A DNA stretch of 22,395 nt, from positions 1-22,395 of IMG/VR virus record IMGVR_UViG_3300021962_009333; one strand, given 5' to 3'. Below, in pieces: positions 2,329 through 22,395 of the stretch; position 1 is the first letter of the stretch, and each line of letters opens with the position of its first letter. The DNA comes from a virus. The notes beneath the pieces are model-generated. The model was given only the letters and a program-made list of their open reading frames with translations. It did no database searches and had not been told where the DNA came from. The translations under genes were made by a program, and so were the position numbers.

Positions 2329-2703
2329 ATGTATAAAGATTTAATAAAAGATAATCAATCGTTTTCATTACAAACTCCAAAAACAATAGTCCCTAAACCA
2401 TCTAATAATGATTATGCATCGGCATATTTGGTTAGATACTTCATTCAGAGAGTTAGTGATGATAATGGATTTGTTTATGAAATTTCGGAATCCGAATATG
2501 AAAGCTATTTTGAAAATCCATATTGGATAGTAGCTACTATGAGATGGAGAATATCCGGTCCTTTAAATATGGTATATGATTCAAATGGTAATTTAATAGA
2601 TAAGGGTGTAATTGAATCGAACAAATCATCTTTATCGATAGTTTCTTTGAAAATTAAAAATATTTCATTATATTTACCAAACTTAAAACAATTTCATAAA
2701 TAA
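2329..2703 (+). CDS. Hypothetical 124-aa protein in the virion operon
   Basis: No family is recognised. The protein is soluble-looking and mixed, with an aromatic-rich centre (YEISESEYESYFENPYWIV, about residues 45-63) followed by MRWRISGPLNMVYDSNGNLIDKG, which looks like a beta-hairpin region. It starts two bases after the stop of the hub-like gene, and its TAA stop (2701-2703) shares one base with the ATG of the dioxygenase gene (TAATG), which indicates translational coupling. The position suggests a small tail or baseplate-associated protein, but nothing in the sequence proves it. The reading frame is uninterrupted and its base composition matches its neighbours. Confidence 0.6.
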   Translation: MYKDLIKDNQSFSLQTPKTIVPKPSNNDYASAYLVRYFIQRVSDDNGFVYEISESEYESYFENPYWIVATMRWRISGPLNMVYDSNGNLIDKGVIESNKSSLSIVSLKIKNISLYLPNLKQFHK

Positions 2704-3464
2704 TGAAGCACGTTACCCAAACTGAAGCTGAAAACTTATTACACGATTGGAAATACAAAGGATATGCAATTGTGGATTTTCTTACTGAATCTGAAGTAGA
2801 TGAAATAATTGCTGAATTGGATAGATTACGAATTAATAGAAATCAATCCGATACAAAGTGGGGAGAATACGAACCATATATGCATCCACATAAAGAATCG
2901 GAATTAGTTAATAAGATGTTAGCACATCCAAAAGCCATTGAGATGATGGAATTATTATTTGGTTCAGAAGTACAGGGTGTGCAAACGTGGGCATATTTTA
3001 AACCATCTGGCGAATTGGGTAGAGATGCACATCAAGATGGATTCTATTCACAAGCGGGTTGGAATAAAATTGCAAACATATCAATATCATTAGACCCATC
3101 CGATGAGAGTAATGGTGGATTATGGGCATACGAAGGTTCGCACTACTTACCATTATTGGATATCGAAGTTGATGAGGAGAGAGTTAAAACAAACCCAGGC
3201 AATTGGAGAAACGAAAGAGGTAAAGCATCTAAGATGCCCGAAGGACATAATTTCCCAAAAATATATGCTACACTTAAAAAAGGACAAGCGTTTTTAATTC
3301 ATTCTCATTTAGTACATGGTTCTGATACTAATACGGGTAAAAATTCGAGATATTCCATTTTAAGTGGATATATGGTTAAAGGCGGTTTCCTTAGACAAGG
3401 AGAGCATATGAAAAGAGAACCAATCGATATTTACGATTTAAGACAAAAATATTGGGGAGAATAG
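2703..3464 (+). CDS. PhyH-family Fe(II)/2-oxoglutarate-dependent dioxygenase
   Basis: This 253-aa protein has the double-stranded beta-helix signature of phytanoyl-CoA dioxygenase-type (PhyH) enzymes. The iron-binding HxD is H110-Q-D112 (in GRDAHQDGFYSQ), the distal histidine is probably H205 (in HSHLVHGSD, with H202 as an alternative), and R216 eleven residues on is placed to bind the 2-oxoglutarate carboxylate. A helical N-terminus (MTQ..EAENLLHDWKYKGYAIVDFL-like) also fits the family. Such enzymes couple oxidative decarboxylation of 2-oxoglutarate to hydroxylation of a substrate, which the sequence does not reveal here. T4-like marine phages commonly carry 2OG oxygenases. Coupling to the preceding virion gene by a 1-nt TAATG overlap suggests late expression and possibly a virion protein substrate (inference). 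The gene ends just before a promoter. Confidence 0.85.
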   Translation: MKHVTQTEAENLLHDWKYKGYAIVDFLTESEVDEIIAELDRLRINRNQSDTKWGEYEPYMHPHKESELVNKMLAHPKAIEMMELLFGSEVQGVQTWAYFKPSGELGRDAHQDGFYSQAGWNKIANISISLDPSDESNGGLWAYEGSHYLPLLDIEVDEERVKTNPGNWRNERGKASKMPEGHNFPKIYATLKKGQAFLIHSHLVHGSDTNTGKNSRYSILSGYMVKGGFLRQGEHMKREPIDIYDLRQKYWGE

Positions 3465-4819: not shown

Positions 4820-6961
4820 ATGACTCCAAATTTCGAAGAAATATTATTGGAATTAAGTTACAGAATACCAGAAGGAATAGTTGATTTAACTAACGAAGAA
4901 CATCTAAACGAACTTATCAATATATTAGAAGAAAATGGTGTGTCTAACGCTAAAGGTTTAGCATTGGAAGCCAAACAAAGTTTAGAAAAATTATTATCTA
5001 CAACATTTAAAAACCCTGAAACGGGAAATTTAGTAAAAGTAGATAGTGCTCTAAGATACAAAAAATCATCACAAGCCTACAAGATAGCTAATAGTATGCT
5101 TGATAAGGGTGGATATAGTGAGGATGATTTAACAACAGTGGATGCTGGACCCGATGATGAGGAAAAGCCTAATGTATTTGGTAAAGATAAAGGGGGTAAT
5201 GTATTTCCATCCAAACCTAAACCAAAAGTTTCTACAAAACCCGCTACAACTAATGCAGATGGTTTGAATTTAAAGGCAGATGAAGTATCAAAAAGAACAG
5301 CCGCTTTATCGCAAGTTATTCAAAAAGATTTTACAACTGAATTAAAGAAGAGTTTAGGAGATAGAGGTATAAAAACTTTGGTGGCTGGATTTGAAAAAAT
5401 GATATCAGGCCAAAAGGTTAATGCACAGGAAAAGGATTTACTACAAAAGTTTGTAGCATTCAAAGATAAAGAAGGTGAAGCTACATTATATATAGCAAAC
5501 GTAACACCTGGTGAGTTTAAAAAGCATAAAAAGGTTGAGTTTGGTGCTACAAAAAGAGAAGCCCTTAAACAATTATCACAATCGTTTGGCTTACAAACTA
5601 CAAAAGCACAAGAAGGTGCATTGGGTAAAAAGGAAGTTGTAGCAAATAAAATAACAAAAGCTAGAAAAACTATTAGTGCCGATAAGGGTAAGGATGGTTC
5701 TATTACGTTGGAAGGAGTTGTACATAAGCCAATTTCTATACCAAAAGAAAAAGATTTGGCATTAGAGCTTAATAAATTGGGAATACCAAATGCTCAAATT
5801 GAAGCCAAAACAGCCATTGCTGCTCTAAGAAGATATAATAAACAATTAGAAATGATGACAACTGCCGGTAAATTTGAGGTAGTTGATTTTGGTGATACAT
5901 CTACACCCGAAGGAAGAGTTAAAACATTTGATAATGTTAAAAAACTTTACACAAATAAGTTTTCAGAATTGTTTCAAAGAAACGGAGCTATAACTAAAGA
6001 ACAAAAAGCTATTTTAGATAAATTTAATAGTATTAAGTTTAATCAAAACGGAAGTAATCCTAATTTTGAAAAAGAAGTAGATGATGTATTAGGTGCAATG
6101 ACTCTTAATAAAGATTTTAGAACCGCTGTACCTGATTTATTGGAAGTATTAGTATTTGCAAAAATGCTAGGTAGAGGTTATCATGCATTCTTACCATCAT
6201 CTGAAACATTTAAGGTATCTGATGTAATAGCATTTAAAGAACCAAATTTAAAATTATCCAAAAATGGTAATGTTGCTAAGTCAATTGCTGATAATTTTAA
6301 AATGATTAAAACCTCAATGGTGTTAGTTGGTGGTCAAAGTGTTAAATTTGCAGAAGGTGGAGCAGGTCAAAGTGATTCTAAAGTAGAACAAACAGAATAT
6401 AGACATCCAGAAACAAAGGTAGTACTACAAAATTTATTAAGTACACATCAATTTGTATATGGAAAGAGTAAAGATGGTAAATACCCACCATCTACCCAAG
6501 ATGTTGCAAAAAGAGAAAAGCAAATAATGTTTCATTTAGATTGGGCAGTAAAAAATAATATCATTTCAAAAGATGAATATAAAGGTATTATGGAAATGGC
6601 TGATAGACAATCTGAAAATGCATTCCAAACTGCTATGAGAAATGGAGTAGGACCTTTTTCAGAATCAGAAAAAGCTGAATATAAAAAATTATTAAGATTG
6701 CATACATTATCCGGAGCATCTGTTCAAGCTATAAATAACAACGATACCGATTTTAATTATTTCTCAAATGAAAGAAGTAAAGTTAATGAGAAAACAGGTG
6801 TAGTTGTTAATGAGGAGTTGGATGGTATTATTAAAAAATGTTGTATGGGATGGTCTTACAACCCAGGTTTTAAATTTAGTTCGTTTGGCGGTAAAAAATG
6901 GATGACACCAAATAATGTTAACCCATCGCATATAGTGTCGTGTGATAAAAAAAGAAGATAA
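4820..6961 (+). CDS. Large hypothetical protein, possibly virion-associated
   Basis: This 713-aa protein is not securely recognised. The N-terminus (residues 1-60) is helical and acidic, with ELSYRIPEGIVDLTNEEHL. It is followed at about 63-90 by NPETGNLVKVDSALRYKK, an arrangement I associate from memory with large proteins of marine T4-like phages (low certainty). Residues about 105-150 form a low-complexity Lys/Pro/Thr linker, followed by long lysine- and glutamate-rich helical stretches. The C-terminus is different in character: aromatic and Gly/Cys-containing (CCMGWSYNPGF, then FSSFGGKKW), with a basic end. There are no membrane segments. The gene is preceded by a 51-bp A/T-rich gap without a strong host-type promoter, and the ATG follows AAATAAATA, the same context as the hub-like gene at 101. 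Late expression with the structural genes is therefore plausible. Confidence 0.6.
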   Translation: MTPNFEEILLELSYRIPEGIVDLTNEEHLNELINILEENGVSNAKGLALEAKQSLEKLLSTTFKNPETGNLVKVDSALRYKKSSQAYKIANSMLDKGGYSEDDLTTVDAGPDDEEKPNVFGKDKGGNVFPSKPKPKVSTKPATTNADGLNLKADEVSKRTAALSQVIQKDFTTELKKSLGDRGIKTLVAGFEKMISGQKVNAQEKDLLQKFVAFKDKEGEATLYIANVTPGEFKKHKKVEFGATKREALKQLSQSFGLQTTKAQEGALGKKEVVANKITKARKTISADKGKDGSITLEGVVHKPISIPKEKDLALELNKLGIPNAQIEAKTAIAALRRYNKQLEMMTTAGKFEVVDFGDTSTPEGRVKTFDNVKKLYTNKFSELFQRNGAITKEQKAILDKFNSIKFNQNGSNPNFEKEVDDVLGAMTLNKDFRTAVPDLLEVLVFAKMLGRGYHAFLPSSETFKVSDVIAFKEPNLKLSKNGNVAKSIADNFKMIKTSMVLVGGQSVKFAEGGAGQSDSKVEQTEYRHPETKVVLQNLLSTHQFVYGKSKDGKYPPSTQDVAKREKQIMFHLDWAVKNNIISKDEYKGIMEMADRQSENAFQTAMRNGVGPFSESEKAEYKKLLRLHTLSGASVQAINNNDTDFNYFSNERSKVNEKTGVVVNEELDGIIKKCCMGWSYNPGFKFSSFGGKKWMTPNNVNPSHIVSCDKKRR

Positions 6962-8095: not shown

Positions 8096-8452
8096 ATGGC
8101 AGAAGAAATCAAAGCAGAATCGGCAATTCAATATTGCGAACACACATATCCTCAAACTTGTGAGGAATTCAAAAACATTTTAGATGAGATGTATGTTACG
8201 TTTTGTAAAAAACAACGTAATTATGGACCTGGAAATATTTCCGTAGGAACGGCATTGGAAACTAAAGATGATGTTAAGTTATCATTGACTGGATTGTGGT
8301 TTAGAATAAATGATAAAGTTCAACGTTTAAAACAATTAGTAGTATTAGGTCAACCAGATGAGGTAGGTGAATCGATTCAAGACACTTATGAAGATTTATC
8401 GGTATATGGTGTAATCGCACAAATTGTTCAACGAGGTAAATGGGCAAAGTAA
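8096..8452 (+). CDS. DUF1599 / Nmad1-like nucleotide-modification-associated protein
   Basis: This 118-aa protein has the small all-helical pattern of DUF1599, also named nucleotide modification associated domain 1. It has FKNILDEMYVTFCKKQRNYGPG (25-46), FRINDKVQRLKQL (69-81), and ESIQDTYEDLSVYGVIA (92-108). The conserved polar residues of the last two helices (D73-K74, E92, D96 and D100) look like a metal- or nucleotide-binding set as in MazG-like folds. The family was named from its genomic association with base-modification systems, and its activity is not established as far as I know. The start is placed at the ATG in AAGTTATATG, five bases after the methyltransferase stop. Its TAA overlaps the ATG of dCMP deaminase by one base, so the two are likely coupled. 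Confidence 0.7.
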   Translation: MAEEIKAESAIQYCEHTYPQTCEEFKNILDEMYVTFCKKQRNYGPGNISVGTALETKDDVKLSLTGLWFRINDKVQRLKQLVVLGQPDEVGESIQDTYEDLSVYGVIAQIVQRGKWAK

Positions 8453-18011: not shown

Positions 18012-18043
18012 TTTGTGATTCTCAAAAAAAAGTGTTATATTAG
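18012..18043 (+). promoter_or_regulatory. Bacteroidetes-type promoter of the accessory cassette
   Basis: TTTG lies at 18012-18015 and TATATTAG at 18036-18043 (one mismatch to TAnnTTTG), with a 20-bp spacer. The first ATG of the HTH gene is four bases beyond the -7 box (18048), so the transcript would start at or next to the start codon. Confidence 0.6.
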
Positions 18044-18047
18044 ACGT

Positions 18048-18245
18048 ATGTTAAGAGGAGAAGCGCATCCAATGCACAAATTAACTGAAGAGCAAATATT
18101 GCAAATCAGAGAACTATATAAAGTAGGTCATAGAAATATTAATGTTATTGCTAGGAACTACCGAGTATCTCCTGCTAACATCAAAAAAATAGTTACTAAC
18201 CAAACGTGGACACATATGATTAAGTGGCCATATGAAAAGCAATAA
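18048..18245 (+). CDS. Small helix-turn-helix protein
   Basis: This 65-aa protein begins MLRGEAHPMHKLTEEQILQIRELYK and continues with RNINVIARNYRVSPANIKKIV, ending in NQTWTHM. The pattern 'G-x-x-HP-x-x-KLTEEQ-x-x-x-IR-x-LY...IA-x-x-Y-x-VS-x-x-x-I-x-x-I' is the HTH that occurs in phage HNH homing endonucleases and in stand-alone small phage proteins. No HNH catalytic motif is present. It could regulate its own cassette. The start is at ATG 18048 rather than an upstream GTG at 18015, because the GTG lies inside the promoter and the extra residues (MILKKKCYIRR) do not fit the family. It is the first gene of the Mom-like cassette, and the next ATG is three bases after its stop. Confidence 0.7.
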   Translation: MLRGEAHPMHKLTEEQILQIRELYKVGHRNINVIARNYRVSPANIKKIVTNQTWTHMIKWPYEKQ

Positions 18246-18248
18246 GTT

Positions 18249-18407
18249 ATGACTTCCGAAGAGCAAATCGAAGAGATTTTATTAGAAGCTCATTCTTATG
18301 GATTGTGGAAAGAAGTGTTAGATACAGCTAGCTCTATTATGGATAAAGACCCAAAGAGAGATAGAGTATCTGCGTTCGAAGAGGCATTCAATGAATGGGT
18401 AAAATAG
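18249..18407 (+). CDS. Small acidic 52-aa protein
   Basis: The ORF from ATG 18249 to TAG 18407 encodes MTSEEQIEEILLEAHSYGLW..., ending FEEAFNEWVK. It is predicted to be almost entirely helical and acidic, with regularly spaced hydrophobics (ILL, LWKEVL, AFEEAF), and looks like a compact two- or three-helix protein. No family is recognised. The evidence that it is real is the AAGTTATG start context shared with several neighbouring genes, the exact fit between the HTH gene (3 bp before) and the first Mom-like gene (4 bp after), and the coherent amphipathic pattern. Confidence 0.7.
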   Translation: MTSEEQIEEILLEAHSYGLWKEVLDTASSIMDKDPKRDRVSAFEEAFNEWVK

Positions 18408-18411
18408 TTAT

Positions 18412-19167
18412 ATGAAAGTAGAAGGAAAAGAATATTGCGATATATCCAAACTTTCAATAAGATTAGTAAGTAAAGATATAGCAAAAGATATCATCGTTAA
18501 TAACCATTATAGTGGTATATGGACAAAGGTATCTTATGCTATTGGTTTGTTTTATGTTTCTAATGATGAACACAAATTCTTTGGTGGAGTAAACGAAAAA
18601 CTTATTGGTGTAGCTTGTTATGGCGACCCAATTGGTAGACACTCCGGCGCATCCATTTCGGAACTATTAGATAGAACGGAAGTTTTAGAACTGACTCGTT
18701 TATTTGTATTTGATGGTTATGGTAGTAATATTGAAAGTTGGTTTGTTGGTAAAACCTTTGAATGGTTAAGAGAAAACGCACCACATATCAAAGCATTAGT
18801 ATCATATTCAGACCCAAAGGTAGGGCATTTAGGGACTGTATATCAAGCAACGAATTGGATATATCAGGGTAATAAAATACGACCAAATGATAGCTGGAGT
18901 TTTAGATGGAGTGAAATTGATGAGTGGCATCATAGTAGAACTTCATACGTTAAGTATGGAACAAATGACCCAAAGATAATTCAAACAATGGTAACATCAC
19001 CATTTTGGATTAAAAAAGAACCACGAAAGCATAGATATGTTTACATATTATTGAGTGGAAGAGAACGAAAAAAATTATTAAAATCATTAAAATACCCATC
19101 TCTACCATATCCAAAACTTAATGTGGATTTTGTGGAGGAGATAATTAAATTAGAGCCAATAAATTAA
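18412..19167 (+). CDS. Mom-like GNAT-fold protein, copy 1 (putative DNA adenine modification)
   Basis: This 251-aa protein resembles phage Mu Mom, which converts adenine in DNA to N6-carbamoylmethyladenine and has a GNAT fold. Matching blocks are NHYS (31-34), LIGVACYGDP (64-73), LELTRLFV (92-99), GSNIESWFVG (104-113), LVSYSDP (129-135), and HLGTVYQATNWIYQG (139-153), corresponding to the 'SWADG...VYQA..FLYGG' style of Mom. HSRT (174-177) and KHRYVYIL (206-213) close the domain, and a basic tail follows. Mom binds its small-molecule donor and needs no SAM. The identity of the donor here is unknown. The next gene is a close paralogue. Other GNAT-type acyltransferase activities remain possible, and the assignment rests on remembered motif similarity. 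Confidence 0.62.
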   Translation: MKVEGKEYCDISKLSIRLVSKDIAKDIIVNNHYSGIWTKVSYAIGLFYVSNDEHKFFGGVNEKLIGVACYGDPIGRHSGASISELLDRTEVLELTRLFVFDGYGSNIESWFVGKTFEWLRENAPHIKALVSYSDPKVGHLGTVYQATNWIYQGNKIRPNDSWSFRWSEIDEWHHSRTSYVKYGTNDPKIIQTMVTSPFWIKKEPRKHRYVYILLSGRERKKLLKSLKYPSLPYPKLNVDFVEEIIKLEPIN

Positions 19168-19171
19168 AGTT

Positions 19172-19975
19172 ATGAAAGTAGAAGGCAAAAATTATTGTGA
19201 TACTTCCAGAGTATATCTTTCACCAATATCAAAAGATATCGCGAAAGATATAATTGTAAAGAAACACTACACACACGCTTGGACAGCTTGTAGATATGCA
19301 TTAGGTATATTTTATAAAATGGATGAAGTAAACGCAGTTGGTGAAAGTGATAAATTAATCGGATGTCTAATTTATGGATTTCCCGTAGGAGCTAGAGCAT
19401 CCACATCAGTATGTGAGGGATTAACCAAAGATAACATTTTGGAATTGACTCGTTTATATTGCGATGATGGATATGGTTCTAATATTGAATCATTTGCATT
19501 GGGGCAATCTTTTAAATGGTTAAAGGAAAACGATAAAGCAATTAAGGTATTGATATCATACGCTGATAACGGACAAGAACATTTAGGTGGAATTTATCAG
19601 GCAACTAATTGGATTTATCAAGGTTTAAATACTGATATTGCATTAATGCCAAATTATGGTATCTCCTTATCAAACGACCCATATAAATGGATTCATAGTA
19701 GAACTGTATTTAGTAAATGGGGAAGTGGTAATTTGGAACATCTTCGTAGAGAAATTGGTAAGGATGGTTATAAGCAATTTTGGAGAAGAGAAGAACCACC
19801 AAAACATAGATATGTTCAAATTCTAGCTGCCGATAAGAAAGAAAAAAAGGAATTAAAAAGTAGATTAAAGCACGCAATTAGAGAATATCCAAAAGATGCG
19901 AGAGCATTCAACAAAACCATTCAGGAGCATACTACAATAGAACCTGAAACCGAAATAACTACCAATTTTTGGTAA
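19172..19975 (+). CDS. Mom-like GNAT-fold protein, copy 2 (putative DNA adenine modification)
   Basis: This 267-aa protein is a paralogue of the preceding gene. Both start MKVEGK-x-YCD and share SKDIAKDIIV (20-29) identically. KHYT (31-34), LIGCLIYGFPVG (62-73), ELTRLYCDDGYGSNIES (91-107), ISYAD (128-132), EHLGGIYQATNWIYQG (136-151), WIHSRT (173-178) and PKHRYVQIL (210-218) line up block for block, while the region about 151-170 and the C-terminal tail differ. The tail is longer and lysine-rich, ending EITTNFW. It starts four bases after the first copy with AAGTTATG. Tandem duplication followed by divergence is the simplest origin, and the two copies may differ in target sequence or act as a heterodimer (inference). 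Its 3' end contains the promoter of the next gene. Confidence 0.62.
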   Translation: MKVEGKNYCDTSRVYLSPISKDIAKDIIVKKHYTHAWTACRYALGIFYKMDEVNAVGESDKLIGCLIYGFPVGARASTSVCEGLTKDNILELTRLYCDDGYGSNIESFALGQSFKWLKENDKAIKVLISYADNGQEHLGGIYQATNWIYQGLNTDIALMPNYGISLSNDPYKWIHSRTVFSKWGSGNLEHLRREIGKDGYKQFWRREEPPKHRYVQILAADKKEKKELKSRLKHAIREYPKDARAFNKTIQEHTTIEPETEITTNFW

Positions 19976-19999
19976 TTTAAAATTAATTTGTTATATTTG
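19968..19999 (+). promoter_or_regulatory. Bacteroidetes-type promoter for the DUF4338 gene
   Basis: TTTG lies at 19968-19971, overlapping the last codons of the second Mom-like gene, and TATATTTG at 19992-19999, with a 20-bp spacer. The ATG at 20004 is four bases past the -7 box, so a leaderless or near-leaderless transcript is predicted, the same geometry as at 18012-18048. Confidence 0.8.
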
Positions 20000-20003
20000 T
20001 AAT

Positions 20004-21230
20004 ATGAAATTTTGGAATACAGGAGAAGAAACAAACACAATCACATTCGATTATGATGTGATGAAAAAGAAGTTCATTGAGAATTTGGACTATCTTAAAG
20101 AAATGTCAGTAGAGGAGCAAACTCTATATAAGAAATGGATTGAGTGGAATGCTGATAGAGTTTCGCATATGAAACGTTTGCCAGTATTACAATCGTATTA
20201 CGATTCACTATGGAAGCCTACCGATATTACTAACAAAGAATTAACTATTTCTGAAATAGAAGCAATAGACCCTTATGTGGAAATCGTAGAAGATGACCCA
20301 AAAGAATCTACTCGTTGGACTGAAATTCGTAAGTTAATACATACTATGGAGTTTTCAGCTAACCCTGGCAGAAATGTAAAAATATATGTTAAGGATAGAG
20401 TAAGTAATAAAATATTAGGACAAATTTGCTTAGGTTCTGATATTACATCATTAGGTGTTAGAGATGAATATATTGGTTGGACTAAAGAGGATAAGTTTGA
20501 AAAAGGTAAATTAAATTGTACATCAATTGCCACCACCATTGTATCGACTCAACCATTTGGTTATAACTTTTTAGGAGGCAAATTAATTGCAGCATTGGCA
20601 ACCGCACCTGAAGTTAGAGCATATTGGAAAACTAAATATGATAATCCATTAGTTGGAGTAGGAACTACATCTTTATATGGTATCCATTCACAATATAATG
20701 GTATCCCACATTTCAAAACATTGGGAGAATCTAAGGGTAAGATTTCAACAAAGCCAGATGATTCGGTTTATAATCCTTGGCATCAATGGATTAAAGAAAA
20801 TCGTTCTGAATGGTATAAGAAAAACATTATGGATGAAAGAGAACGTAATGGTGCAAATATGGGTTACGAAAAGAACGGACCTGTAAGTGGAATTAAACAA
20901 AAGATTATTCAGGCGATATTTAAAGAGTTGGGAATCAAAGGTAACGCTTATGACCACGGATTTCAAAGAGGGGTATATTTTGCCCCAATATACCAAAATG
21001 GTAATGAATTCTTAAAATCAAATATCGAAGAGAAAGATTTAATCCTTAATGAAAAATTTGCTAAAGGAAACGAATATACTACAAAATGGTGGAAAGACAA
21101 AGCCATTAAAAGATATACAAAACTACACGAAGAGGGTAGAATCAAACCCGAAGTATTGTTCTATGTTGATGCCATTGGTATGACGTGGGAACAAATGAAA
21201 AACCATTATTTAAAAGAAGTGGGTAGATAG
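20004..21230 (+). CDS. DUF4338 (DruA-like) domain protein
   Basis: In this 408-aa protein, residues about 104-245 resemble DUF4338, the domain of Druantia DruA. RWTEIRKLIHTMEFS (104-118) comes first, then KILGQICLGSD (136-146), the RD-x-x-IGW block RDEYIGW (153-159), and NCTSIATTIVSTQP (171-184), followed by FGYNFLGGKLIAALA. TTSLYG (221-226) and FKTLGESKGK (237-246) close the domain, corresponding to DUF4338 'GYrA.NW...G.T.GRG'. The N-terminal 100 residues are helical and charged. The C-terminal 150 are basic and aromatic-rich (EWYKKNIMDERER, KWWKDKAIKRYTKL) and may bind nucleic acid. The function of DUF4338 is unknown to me, and none of the other Druantia genes are present. It has its own promoter and terminator. 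Confidence 0.6.
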   Translation: MKFWNTGEETNTITFDYDVMKKKFIENLDYLKEMSVEEQTLYKKWIEWNADRVSHMKRLPVLQSYYDSLWKPTDITNKELTISEIEAIDPYVEIVEDDPKESTRWTEIRKLIHTMEFSANPGRNVKIYVKDRVSNKILGQICLGSDITSLGVRDEYIGWTKEDKFEKGKLNCTSIATTIVSTQPFGYNFLGGKLIAALATAPEVRAYWKTKYDNPLVGVGTTSLYGIHSQYNGIPHFKTLGESKGKISTKPDDSVYNPWHQWIKENRSEWYKKNIMDERERNGANMGYEKNGPVSGIKQKIIQAIFKELGIKGNAYDHGFQRGVYFAPIYQNGNEFLKSNIEEKDLILNEKFAKGNEYTTKWWKDKAIKRYTKLHEEGRIKPEVLFYVDAIGMTWEQMKNHYLKEVGR

Positions 21231-21242
21231 CCCACTTTTTTT
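21217..21242 (+). terminator. Rho-independent terminator of the DUF4338 gene
   Basis: AAGTGGG (21217-21223) pairs with CCCACTT (21231-21237) across the loop TAGATAG, and a run of seven T residues occupies 21236-21242. The TAG stop codon (21228-21230) lies in the loop. GC pairs in the stem and the T-tract make this the clearest terminator in the window. It isolates the accessory cassette from the next gene. Confidence 0.85.
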
Positions 21243-21321: not shown

Positions 21322-22395
21322 ATGAGTGTAATTCACGCCCCAAAAGGTATCAAAAATCAATACAAATTAAAAGAGAGTGATTTTTTAAAAACACCATCTA
21401 TAATAAAAGTTGATATTGGTAATCAGCCCACGCACTATGAGGCATATCTTTACTTAATAACTGACATACCCACTAAAAGAAAATATTTAGGAATACATAA
21501 AAAGAACGATAAAGTTTATTGGACTTCCGCATCCGATAAGGAATTATTAAAACTTTTACAAGGAAGTGAAGGTAGAATTGAATATAAAATATTAGAGTAT
21601 GGCTTTTTATCTGCAATACAAACGAAAGAGCATAAATTACTCTTGCAAAATAATGCAGCAAATTCCGATGAATGGTTTAATAAACAAAATGGATATGTTT
21701 ATTCAGAGAGTGTAGATTATACAATAATCAATAAATTGATTAAAAGAATCAAATCCGGTGAATGGAAATCCAATACCAAAGAAAGTGTAAAAGAATTATT
21801 TGAAAATACACCAACGTGGCAAATTAGAGCCGAAGAATATGTTCCCGCATTACTTAAAGAGTTAAAAGATATTTTAACTGCGGCTGGTAATAATACCGAT
21901 AAATGTAATCCAATTGTAATTTTAGAAAATAGATTAAATGGTAAAATTTATGATGAAACGGATTTAAGAATTGATGGGGCACACACATTAAAAGCTGCAT
22001 ATGAAGTAGGTTCTCAAGAAATACATACAATACGGATACCTGAAGCAATACATAAAGTATTAAACAATACCGAGGTTGAAGTATTGGCATCATTTCTAAA
22101 TGCAAAAGAAGAAATAATAAAAGAGCCGAATTCAAAGGAAACTGCTGCAAAATTTATTTTCAATCGTTACTTAAAAAGTAATGAAGATTATAATTCGGAT
22201 TCTAATATAGAATATCTGAAAGGTTGCGGATTCCAATCTTCAACAGATAGAAAAAAGATTTTGGAGATGGCAAAGGAGATGATTAAAACTTATGATAAAG
22301 AAACTAAGTTTAATATAGTTCTCATTGATTATAAGGAAGCGGATAGTGATATTTTAAATAAAAAAATTAAAGAATTAGAATCCGACGTAAAATTA
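21322..22395 (+). CDS. GIY-YIG-like plus ParB-like domain protein (partial, 3' end outside window)
   Basis: The frame is open from ATG 21322 to the window end, giving 358 residues. At the N-terminus EAYLYLITD (40-48), RKYLGIHKK (53-61), YWTSASDKELLK (66-77) and TKEHKLLLQNN (101-111, candidate catalytic E103) follow the order of a GIY-YIG nuclease, although the first motif is degenerate (YLYL). At 215-240 LRIDGAHTLKAAYEVG, then EIHTIRIPE, resembles the ParB/Srx-type nuclease motif (IDG-H-x-L-x-AA-x-x-x-G). The region about 265-330 (SKETAAKFIF, EYLKGCGFQSSTDRKKILEMAKEM) looks helical and may bind DNA. It could be a free-standing homing endonuclease or a DNA-binding regulator. Its own promoter and preceding terminator make it an independent unit. 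Confidence 0.6.
   Translation, partial: MSVIHAPKGIKNQYKLKESDFLKTPSIIKVDIGNQPTHYEAYLYLITDIPTKRKYLGIHKKNDKVYWTSASDKELLKLLQGSEGRIEYKILEYGFLSAIQTKEHKLLLQNNAANSDEWFNKQNGYVYSESVDYTIINKLIKRIKSGEWKSNTKESVKELFENTPTWQIRAEEYVPALLKELKDILTAAGNNTDKCNPIVILENRLNGKIYDETDLRIDGAHTLKAAYEVGSQEIHTIRIPEAIHKVLNNTEVEVLASFLNAKEEIIKEPNSKETAAKFIFNRYLKSNEDYNSDSNIEYLKGCGFQSSTDRKKILEMAKEMIKTYDKETKFNIVLIDYKEADSDILNKKIKELESDVKL

What the first reader, a model, noticed from the sequence alone, without database searches (positions are those of the whole stretch)
18412..21230. Two tandem Mom-like genes followed by a DUF4338/DruA-like gene: candidate DNA-modification cassette
Two divergent paralogues with Mom-type blocks (ELTRL, SNIES, SY-S/A-D, HLG-x-x-YQATNWIYQG) stand side by side, and a DUF4338-like protein with its own promoter follows. 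Mu carries one mom gene. A pair suggests two target specificities, a heterodimer, or one copy acting on a different substrate. DUF4338 and Mom also share a similar layout (G-x-x-x-(F/Y)G, then a GY-x-A-NW-like end), so all three proteins may be variants of one GNAT-like fold. The combination could be a phage anti-restriction system that has not been described.
Basis: partly seen in the sequence, partly recalled or inferred. Interest (0 to 1): 0.75.

Follow-up and report, generated by a model that had tools for sequence, protein, structure and literature searches.

The report
Paired Mom DNA-modification genes beside DruA-like gene
A large bacteriophage carries two different copies of a Mom-type DNA-modifying enzyme side by side, followed by a relative of the immunity protein DruA; the Mom pair is fixed across dozens of related phages, and a previously unnoticed small protein in the same gene slot links the Mom and DruA families.

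Summary
ORFs 18412-19167 and 19172-19975 are bona fide Mom proteins (Pfam Mom E 1.6e-42 and 3.8e-44), about 45% identical. ORF 20004-21230 is a DruA/DUF4338 protein (E 3.4e-23) with its own Bacteroidota-type promoter. Both Mom copies keep every Mom-invariant residue, including the serine equivalent to Mu Mom S124, and both are under purifying selection. All 49 contigs with Mom1 and enough sequence also carry Mom2 downstream, whereas 311 isolate phages with Mom show one copy each. So the Mom pair is a stable feature, most likely two active DNA acyltransferases with different target preferences (inferred). The pair is transcribed with an upstream HTH gene. DruA is looser: adjacent in only 23 of 62 contigs, separately promoted, and with no Druantia helicase. 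DUF4338 was already called a GNAT domain in the literature. New here is a short DruA-like family that occupies the same operon slot and bridges DruA and Mom: profile probability 98% to DruA and 97% to Mom, shuffled controls at most 8%, with Mom's R, N, S/T, G, Y and N residues kept. Some phages hold HTH, short DruA, Mom1, Mom2 and DruA in a row. DNA modification itself is untested.

The parts
18015..18245 (+). Small HTH protein (76 aa, GTG start as listed; HTH_7-like), conserved first gene of the Mom operon
   Evidence: Pfam HTH_7 E 1.6e-4, just under cut-off; directly upstream of Mom1 in 53 of 59 near-distinct contigs with room, often overlapping it (e.g. L100 HTH 5784-6008, Mom1 6001)
18249..18407 (+). 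52-aa unknown ORF between HTH and Mom1, present in some relatives only
   Evidence: translation; no Pfam match; variably present in related loci
18412..19167 (+). Mom1: Mom-family GNAT acyltransferase, 251 aa
   Evidence: PF25680 E 1.6e-42; PHROG 1384 E 1.6e-50; PDB 8bv8 E 1.9e-9; AlphaFold2 model pLDDT 77.9, best Foldseek hit Mu Mom E 8.1e-13; all Mom-invariant residues kept; median dN/dS 0.13
19172..19975 (+). Mom2: divergent Mom paralogue, 267 aa
   Evidence: PF25680 E 3.8e-44; PHROG 1384 E 2.4e-47; PDB 8bv8 E 2.4e-4; all Mom-invariant residues kept; median dN/dS 0.15
19968..19999 (+). Bacteroidota-type promoter TTTG-N20-TATATTTG for the DruA-like gene, overlapping the 3' end of Mom2
   Evidence: 11 in window, 2.0 expected; full promoter or its TAnnTTTG element kept upstream of DruA in several different contexts, none upstream of 62 Mom1 genes
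20004..21230 (+). DruA/DUF4338-family protein, 408 aa, GNAT-like core about residues 90-245 with helical N- and C-terminal parts
   Evidence: PF14236 E 3.4e-23; PADLOC DruA E 3.1e-20; AlphaFold2 pLDDT 82.7; 49 of the 50 best PDB fold hits are GNAT-fold proteins, though E 0.015-0.3
21217..21242 (+). Intrinsic terminator: 7-bp hairpin AAGTGGG/CCCACTT then T run, overlapping the DruA stop codon
   Evidence: read directly from the sequence; the hairpin is listed on the - strand, T run on + read by eye

Best explanation
The window is part of a large T4-like phage, probably of a Bacteroidota host. It carries an operon, HTH-Mom1-Mom2, that encodes two active Mom-type GNAT enzymes. Shown: both are Mom-family proteins; both keep the family-invariant residues; the pair is retained under purifying selection. 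Inferred from Mu Mom: each transfers a small acyl-type group to N6 of adenine in phage DNA and so shields it from host restriction enzymes. Inferred from anatomy: the two copies persist because they act on different target contexts. They differ most in a segment after the YQATNW motif (Mom1 residues 156-205, 26% identity against about 50-63% in the core), and that same segment has been swapped as a block between Mom1 genes. The DruA-like gene is a separately transcribed GNAT-fold protein of the same wider superfamily. It often lies nearby but is not an obligate part, and its substrate is unknown.
For: Mom family matches far above cut-off and Mu Mom structure as best fold match. Across 20 diverse phage Moms, H58, Y59, G81, R111, S/T124, G156, Y159, A161 and N163 (Mu numbering) are invariant or nearly so, and Mom1 and Mom2 keep all of them plus D149; PDB 8bv8 is titled the inactive S124A mutant. 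Median dN/dS is 0.13 and 0.15 with no pair above 1. All 49 near-distinct contigs with Mom1 and room have Mom2 downstream. In 13 of the 14 large contigs with Mom genes (81-245 kb) there are exactly two; the other has three. Mom1 and Mom2 form two clades, each 100/99. Mom1 versus Mom2 identity by segment is, and the swapped block in L049 and L161 (97% identical to each other there, 52% to L160, flanks 71-91%). Operon structure: HTH upstream in 53 of 59, no promoter before 62 Mom1 genes.
Against: No chemistry has been seen. Different specificity is inferred only from divergence and one block swap. The dependence looks asymmetric: Mom2 occurs without Mom1 in 8 contigs but Mom1 never without Mom2, which a simple two-specificities model does not predict. 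Sisterhood of the two Mom clades is favoured (98/84) but grouping either with the Polaribacter phage Mom is not rejected (AU p 0.09 and 0.08), so two separate acquisitions remain possible. The active-site loop of the Mom1 model is low confidence (residues 140-147 below pLDDT 50), and Mom2 was not modelled.
Confidence: 0.55

Rival explanations
1. Mom1 and Mom2 work as a heteromeric enzyme, or Mom1 depends on Mom2, so the pair is one modification activity rather than two.
For: Mom1 is never found without Mom2 (49 of 49), while Mom2 occurs without Mom1 in 8 contigs; in most window-like contigs the two genes abut (ORF gaps of -19 to -1).
Against: Both keep the full set of Mom-invariant residues, unlike a pair with one non-catalytic partner. 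In many relatives one to three other genes are inserted between them (gaps of 238 to 2434 nt), weakening a need for co-translation. No complex prediction was possible.
Confidence: 0.2
2. One copy has shifted to another acyl donor or another substrate (RNA, protein or a different base), while the other remains a classical Mom.
For: 24 positions are fixed but different between the two clades, several next to conserved motifs (for example F111/A109 and S133/A131).
Against: The residues shared by all Moms, including the S124 and D149 equivalents, are kept in both; A at the S133 position is the Mu wild-type state.
Confidence: 0.15
3. All three genes form one pathway in which DruA adds to, removes or reads the Mom modification.
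For: DruA lies beside Mom2 in 23 of 62 contigs with room and within about 8 kb in most large contigs; a short DruA homologue sits inside the Mom operon in several phages.
Against: DruA has its own promoter, is about 19 kb away in G003, absent from the G008 record with Mom and present without Mom in the G010 record (fragments). Pelagiphage and cyanophage relatives have DruA among replication genes with no Mom next to it.
Confidence: 0.1
4. The DruA-like protein is a phage-borne part of, or decoy for, the Druantia defence system and has nothing to do with DNA modification.
For: Matches PADLOC DruA models; DruA-like proteins in Synechococcus phages were noted by structure in the Phold paper (PMC12774648).
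Against: No MZB/DUF1998-type helicase domain (DruE) in the window or 15 related large records. The fold is GNAT-like and linked to Mom through the short family.
Confidence: 0.1

Closest known systems
Phage Mu Mom (PDB 8bv8; Pfam PF25680; PHROG 1384)
   Same: Same family by HMM, sequence, predicted fold and invariant residues for both window genes.
   Different: Two tandem paralogues here, one in Mu. A small HTH gene stands upstream in place of the Mu com gene. No activity shown.
Polaribacter phage P12002L Mom-like protein (YP_009209713.1)
   Same: Nearest isolate relative, 43-45% identity to either copy; has a DNA methyltransferase gene beside it.
   Different: Single copy, no DruA neighbour.
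DruA of Druantia type I (Pfam PF14236 / DUF4338, PADLOC DruA)
   Same: Window protein 3 is a member by score.
   Different: No Druantia partner genes; part of a phage family (PHROG 19197) also seen in pelagiphages and cyanophages.
DruA-like proteins of Synechococcus phages (Phold paper, PMC12774648) and pelagiphages Mosig and HTVC008M
   Same: Same PHROG 19197 family, 24-37% identity.
   Different: Lie among replication and recombination genes, no Mom gene in the stretches read.
DUF4338 as a GNAT domain fused to DndF (PMC10853773)
   Same: Independent published assignment of DUF4338 to GNAT, agreeing.
   Different: That paper treats a fusion domain in bacterial Dnd systems; the passages read do not mention Mom or phage copies.
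Jumbo-phage Mom domains fused to nucleases (PMC7824862)
   Same: Mom in large phages as DNA modification.
   Different: Described there as Mom-nuclease fusions; here two free-standing tandem Moms without a nuclease domain.

Membership tests
Mom family (PF25680) | Score above the curated cut-off over nearly the whole model | tested here: met
   145.9 and 151.2 bits against 27.1, model positions 2-202 of 202
Mom family (PF25680) | Residues invariant in diverse Moms, incl. Mu R111, S124, D149, Y159, N163 | tested here: met
   all present in Mom1 and Mom2
Mom family (PF25680) | GNAT-type fold like Mu Mom | tested here: met
   Mom1 model best PDB hit 8bv8, E 8.1e-13, TM 0.60/0.73; Mom2 only by sequence alignment
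Mom family (PF25680) | Modification of adenine in DNA | not testable with these tools
   needs mass spectrometry or nanopore data
Mu-type com-mom system | com zinc-finger translational activator overlapping the start of mom | tested here: not met
   the conserved upstream gene matches HTH_7, not a Com family
DruA (PF14236) | Score above curated cut-off | tested here: met
   82.7 bits against 27; all 42 relatives match
Druantia defence system | DruE helicase with MZB/DUF1998 domain encoded with DruA | tested here: not met
   PF09369 absent from the window and 15 related records, while 8 of 14 control genomes rang; records may be fragments
GNAT superfamily (DruA-like protein) | GNAT fold by structure comparison | tested here: inconclusive
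   49 of 50 best PDB hits GNAT-fold but best E only 0.015, target TM up to 0.48
Mom-DruA bridging short DruA family (in related phages) | Significant profile similarity to both DruA and Mom | tested here: met
   hhalign 98.3% to DruA, 96.6% to Mom, 96.4% to Mom from other phages only; shuffled controls at most 8%. The 242-aa type carries the DruA link; the 192-aa type alone reaches only 13% to DruA by hhalign but Pfam DruA E 7.9e-9

The most novel reading that the evidence does not exclude
Mom, the short DruA proteins and DruA (including bacterial Druantia DruA) form one superfamily of DNA nucleobase acyltransferases. These phages carry an expandable island of two to four of them (HTH, short DruA, Mom1, Mom2, DruA in a row in L378), each adding a different mark or acting in a different context, and Druantia type I would contain a DNA-acylating or mark-reading subunit.
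Probability: 0.25. Interest if true: 0.85.

Novelty: new variant of a known kind. Interest (0 to 1): 0.58.

Why it matters
An obligate pair of Mom enzymes would be the first clear sign that phages combine Mom-type DNA marks, as bacteria combine methyltransferases. The sequence bridge between Mom and DruA gives DruA, a subunit of unknown role in Druantia type I, a concrete and testable biochemical hypothesis: acyl transfer to DNA or recognition of acylated DNA. The swapped segment in Mom1 points to where target choice may reside.

Tried and rejected
(1) I considered that Mom2 is a dead enzyme because it has SYAD where Mom1 has SYSD and 8bv8 is an S124A mutant. Rejected: in Mu the mutated serine is in the NSES motif (kept in both copies), and Mu wild type also has SFAD. 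(2) Direct profile comparison of long DruA with Mom gave nothing (0.9% and 1.3% probability); the link rests on the short family. (3) A genome-contig scan with the DruA alignment found no relatives. (4) The literature held here did not contain the primary Mu Mom biochemistry papers, so residue roles beyond the 8bv8 title are not cited. (6) One record of 14 has a third, unrelated Mom, so the pair is not a strict upper limit. (7) A test of whether the pair is one duplication was not decisive.

Full report
What is there. The window is a 22,395-base virus record. Its genes include a gp32-like single-strand binding protein, RecA/UvsX-like protein, DnaB-like helicase, both ribonucleotide reductase subunits, PhoH and thioredoxin. 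Related records reach 137-245 kb. Promoters of the pattern TTTG-N15-21-TAnnTTTG are enriched (11 against 2.0 expected), and Flavobacterium phages are among the nearest isolates by helicase (37%), so a Bacteroidota host is likely (inference). Mom1 and Mom2 are Mom-family proteins and ORF 3 is a DruA/DUF4338 protein, all far above curated cut-offs.

Are both Mom copies functional? Twenty Mom proteins from diverse phages, Mu included, were aligned. H58, Y59, G81, R111, S/T124, G156, Y159, A161 and N163 in Mu numbering are invariant or nearly so; Mom1 and Mom2 carry all of them and also D149. The PDB entry 8bv8 is titled the inactive mutant S124A of Mu Mom. The mutated serine lies in the NSES motif (compare), which is SNIES in both window copies. 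The S/A difference in SYSD versus SYAD is not informative, because Mu has SFAD. The predicted Mom1 structure finds Mu Mom first, then many GNAT acetyltransferases. Median pairwise dN/dS is 0.13 for Mom1, 0.15 for Mom2 and 0.125 for DruA, with no pair above 1.

Is the pair a fixed feature? Related loci were collected from viral contigs and grouped into 76 near-distinct contigs carrying a Mom copy. This grouping is approximate, by shared 400-base stretches. All 49 with Mom1 and at least 3.5 kb of downstream sequence have Mom2 there; 8 have Mom2 without Mom1. Thirteen of the 14 large contigs with Mom genes have exactly two; the other, G011, has three. Its third copy (L373) looks like the ICP1/RaK2 type, judging by its ELRRLCLVDDTPKNAES motif, and so is probably a separate acquisition. 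Among isolate phages, 311 records match Mom1 and 257 match Mom2, always at one place per record. Mom1 and Mom2 form two clades, each 100/99, that group together at 98/84; a smaller analysis did not reject pairing either with the Polaribacter phage Mom (AU p 0.09 and 0.08). A duplication in this phage lineage before the sampled phages diverged is favoured, not proven.

Operon structure. A small HTH gene stands directly before Mom1 in 53 of 59 contigs with room, often overlapping it; a Microbacterium phage also has an HTH gene overlapping its mom. No promoter of the enriched type lies in the 60 nt before any of 62 Mom1 genes, whereas the DruA gene keeps such a promoter or its TAnnTTTG element in several different genomic contexts (23 of 62; 12 with both elements). 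DruA adjoins Mom2 in 23 of 62 contigs with room, lies downstream at 0.6-3 kb in 12 more, lies roughly 6-8 kb away in several large contigs and about 19 kb away in G003. DruA is therefore a frequent neighbour, not part of the core unit. No MZB domain (DruE) was found, so this is not a Druantia system.

The DruA-Mom connection. Long DruA and Mom cannot be linked directly by profile. The DruA model is confident (pLDDT 82.7) and 49 of its 50 best PDB matches are GNAT-fold proteins, but none reaches E 0.001. A published analysis already labels DUF4338 a GNAT domain (PMC10853773). The new element is a short DruA family. In loci lacking Mom1 (L031, L069) the slot between HTH and Mom2 holds a 242-251 aa protein; in G011 a 192-aa one stands between HTH and Mom1; in L378 the order is HTH, short DruA, Mom1, Mom2, DruA. 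Elsewhere the short gene lies 0.7-2.6 kb from a long DruA. These proteins match Pfam DruA (2.8e-26, 6.9e-23, 7.9e-9). Public PHROG models score both families on single proteins, for example L388 at 2.1e-6 for the DruA-like PHROG 19197 over residues 22-142 and 1.6e-5 for the Mom PHROG 1384 over residues 152-240. Profile comparison gives 98.3% to DruA and 96.6% to Mom, 96.4% with Moms from other phages only. The reversed control gives 0.1% and sixty shuffled controls at most 8%. The 242-aa type carries the DruA link; the 192-aa type alone scores 95.7% to Mom but only 13% to DruA by this method. In the short family the positions aligned with Mu R111, N121, S124 (S or T in all 32), G156, Y159 and N163 are invariant and A161 is mostly kept, while D149 is not.

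Possible specificity module. Mom1 and Mom2 are 49-63% identical through the core but 26% in residues 156-205. Two Mom1 proteins (L049, L161) share a residue 159-200 block at 97% identity, while both are 52% identical to L160 there and 71-91% in the flanks. A block swap exactly where the paralogues differ most suggests a target-recognition segment. This is inference; the segment was not placed on a DNA complex.

Mechanism, with status. Shown: membership, conserved residues, purifying selection, fixed pairing, separate transcription signals for DruA. Inferred from Mu: acyl transfer to adenine N6 and protection from restriction. Inferred from anatomy: division of labour by target context. Unknown: the role of DruA and of the short DruA.

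Known versus new. Mom in large phages (PMC7824862), DUF4338 as GNAT (PMC10853773) and DruA-like proteins in cyanophages (PMC12774648) are known. I found no description of a tandem Mom pair or of a Mom-DruA bridge in the library searched; that library omits most subscription journals, so absence there is weak evidence.

Noticed in passing
L378:3757-7496: Five genes in a row: HTH, short DruA, Mom1, Mom2, DruA; the fullest form of the island seen.
   Followed up: partly
L373:1347-1958 (minus strand; G011:C1 100475-100903 is the Mom match): A third Mom gene, with motifs of the ICP1/RaK2 type, far from the Mom1-Mom2 pair in the same record, next to a primase-like gene.
   Followed up: partly
L018:3484-4395 and L155:4689-5603: A predicted N6/N4 DNA methyltransferase gene sits between or beside the Mom and DruA genes in some relatives (Pfam N6_N4_Mtase E 3.9e-23 for L018).
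   Followed up: partly
L049 and L161, Mom1 residues 159-200: Block replacement in Mom1 suggesting recombination of a specificity segment.
   Followed up: partly
window 19968-19999: The promoter -7 element of the DruA gene ends 4 nt before the ATG, so the transcript may be nearly leaderless; the same 4-nt spacing is seen in 10 unique relatives.
   Followed up: partly
window 8096-8452: Protein with a sub-threshold match to DUF1599, Nucleotide modification associated domain 1 (E 6.7e-5).
   Followed up: no
window 2703-3464: PhyH-type 2-oxoglutarate dioxygenase (E 2.3e-20); similar oxygenases neighbour DruA in pelagiphages.
   Followed up: no
window 21322-22395: Large ORF after DruA with its own promoter and no Pfam or PHROG hit; homologues occur near Mom2 in several relatives.
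   Followed up: no
BFVD hits A0A3G4ZXG3, A0A5K0UAJ3, A0A3G4ZRA1: Giant viruses (Faunusvirus, Yasminevirus, Dasosvirus) encode proteins structurally matching the DruA-like protein, E 2.6e-18 to 1.6e-9.
   Followed up: no
L186:3728-4849 (Synechococcus phage S-SCSM2R): A DruA-family protein is annotated in GenBank as methylcarbamoylase mom, a label supported only at superfamily level.
   Followed up: partly
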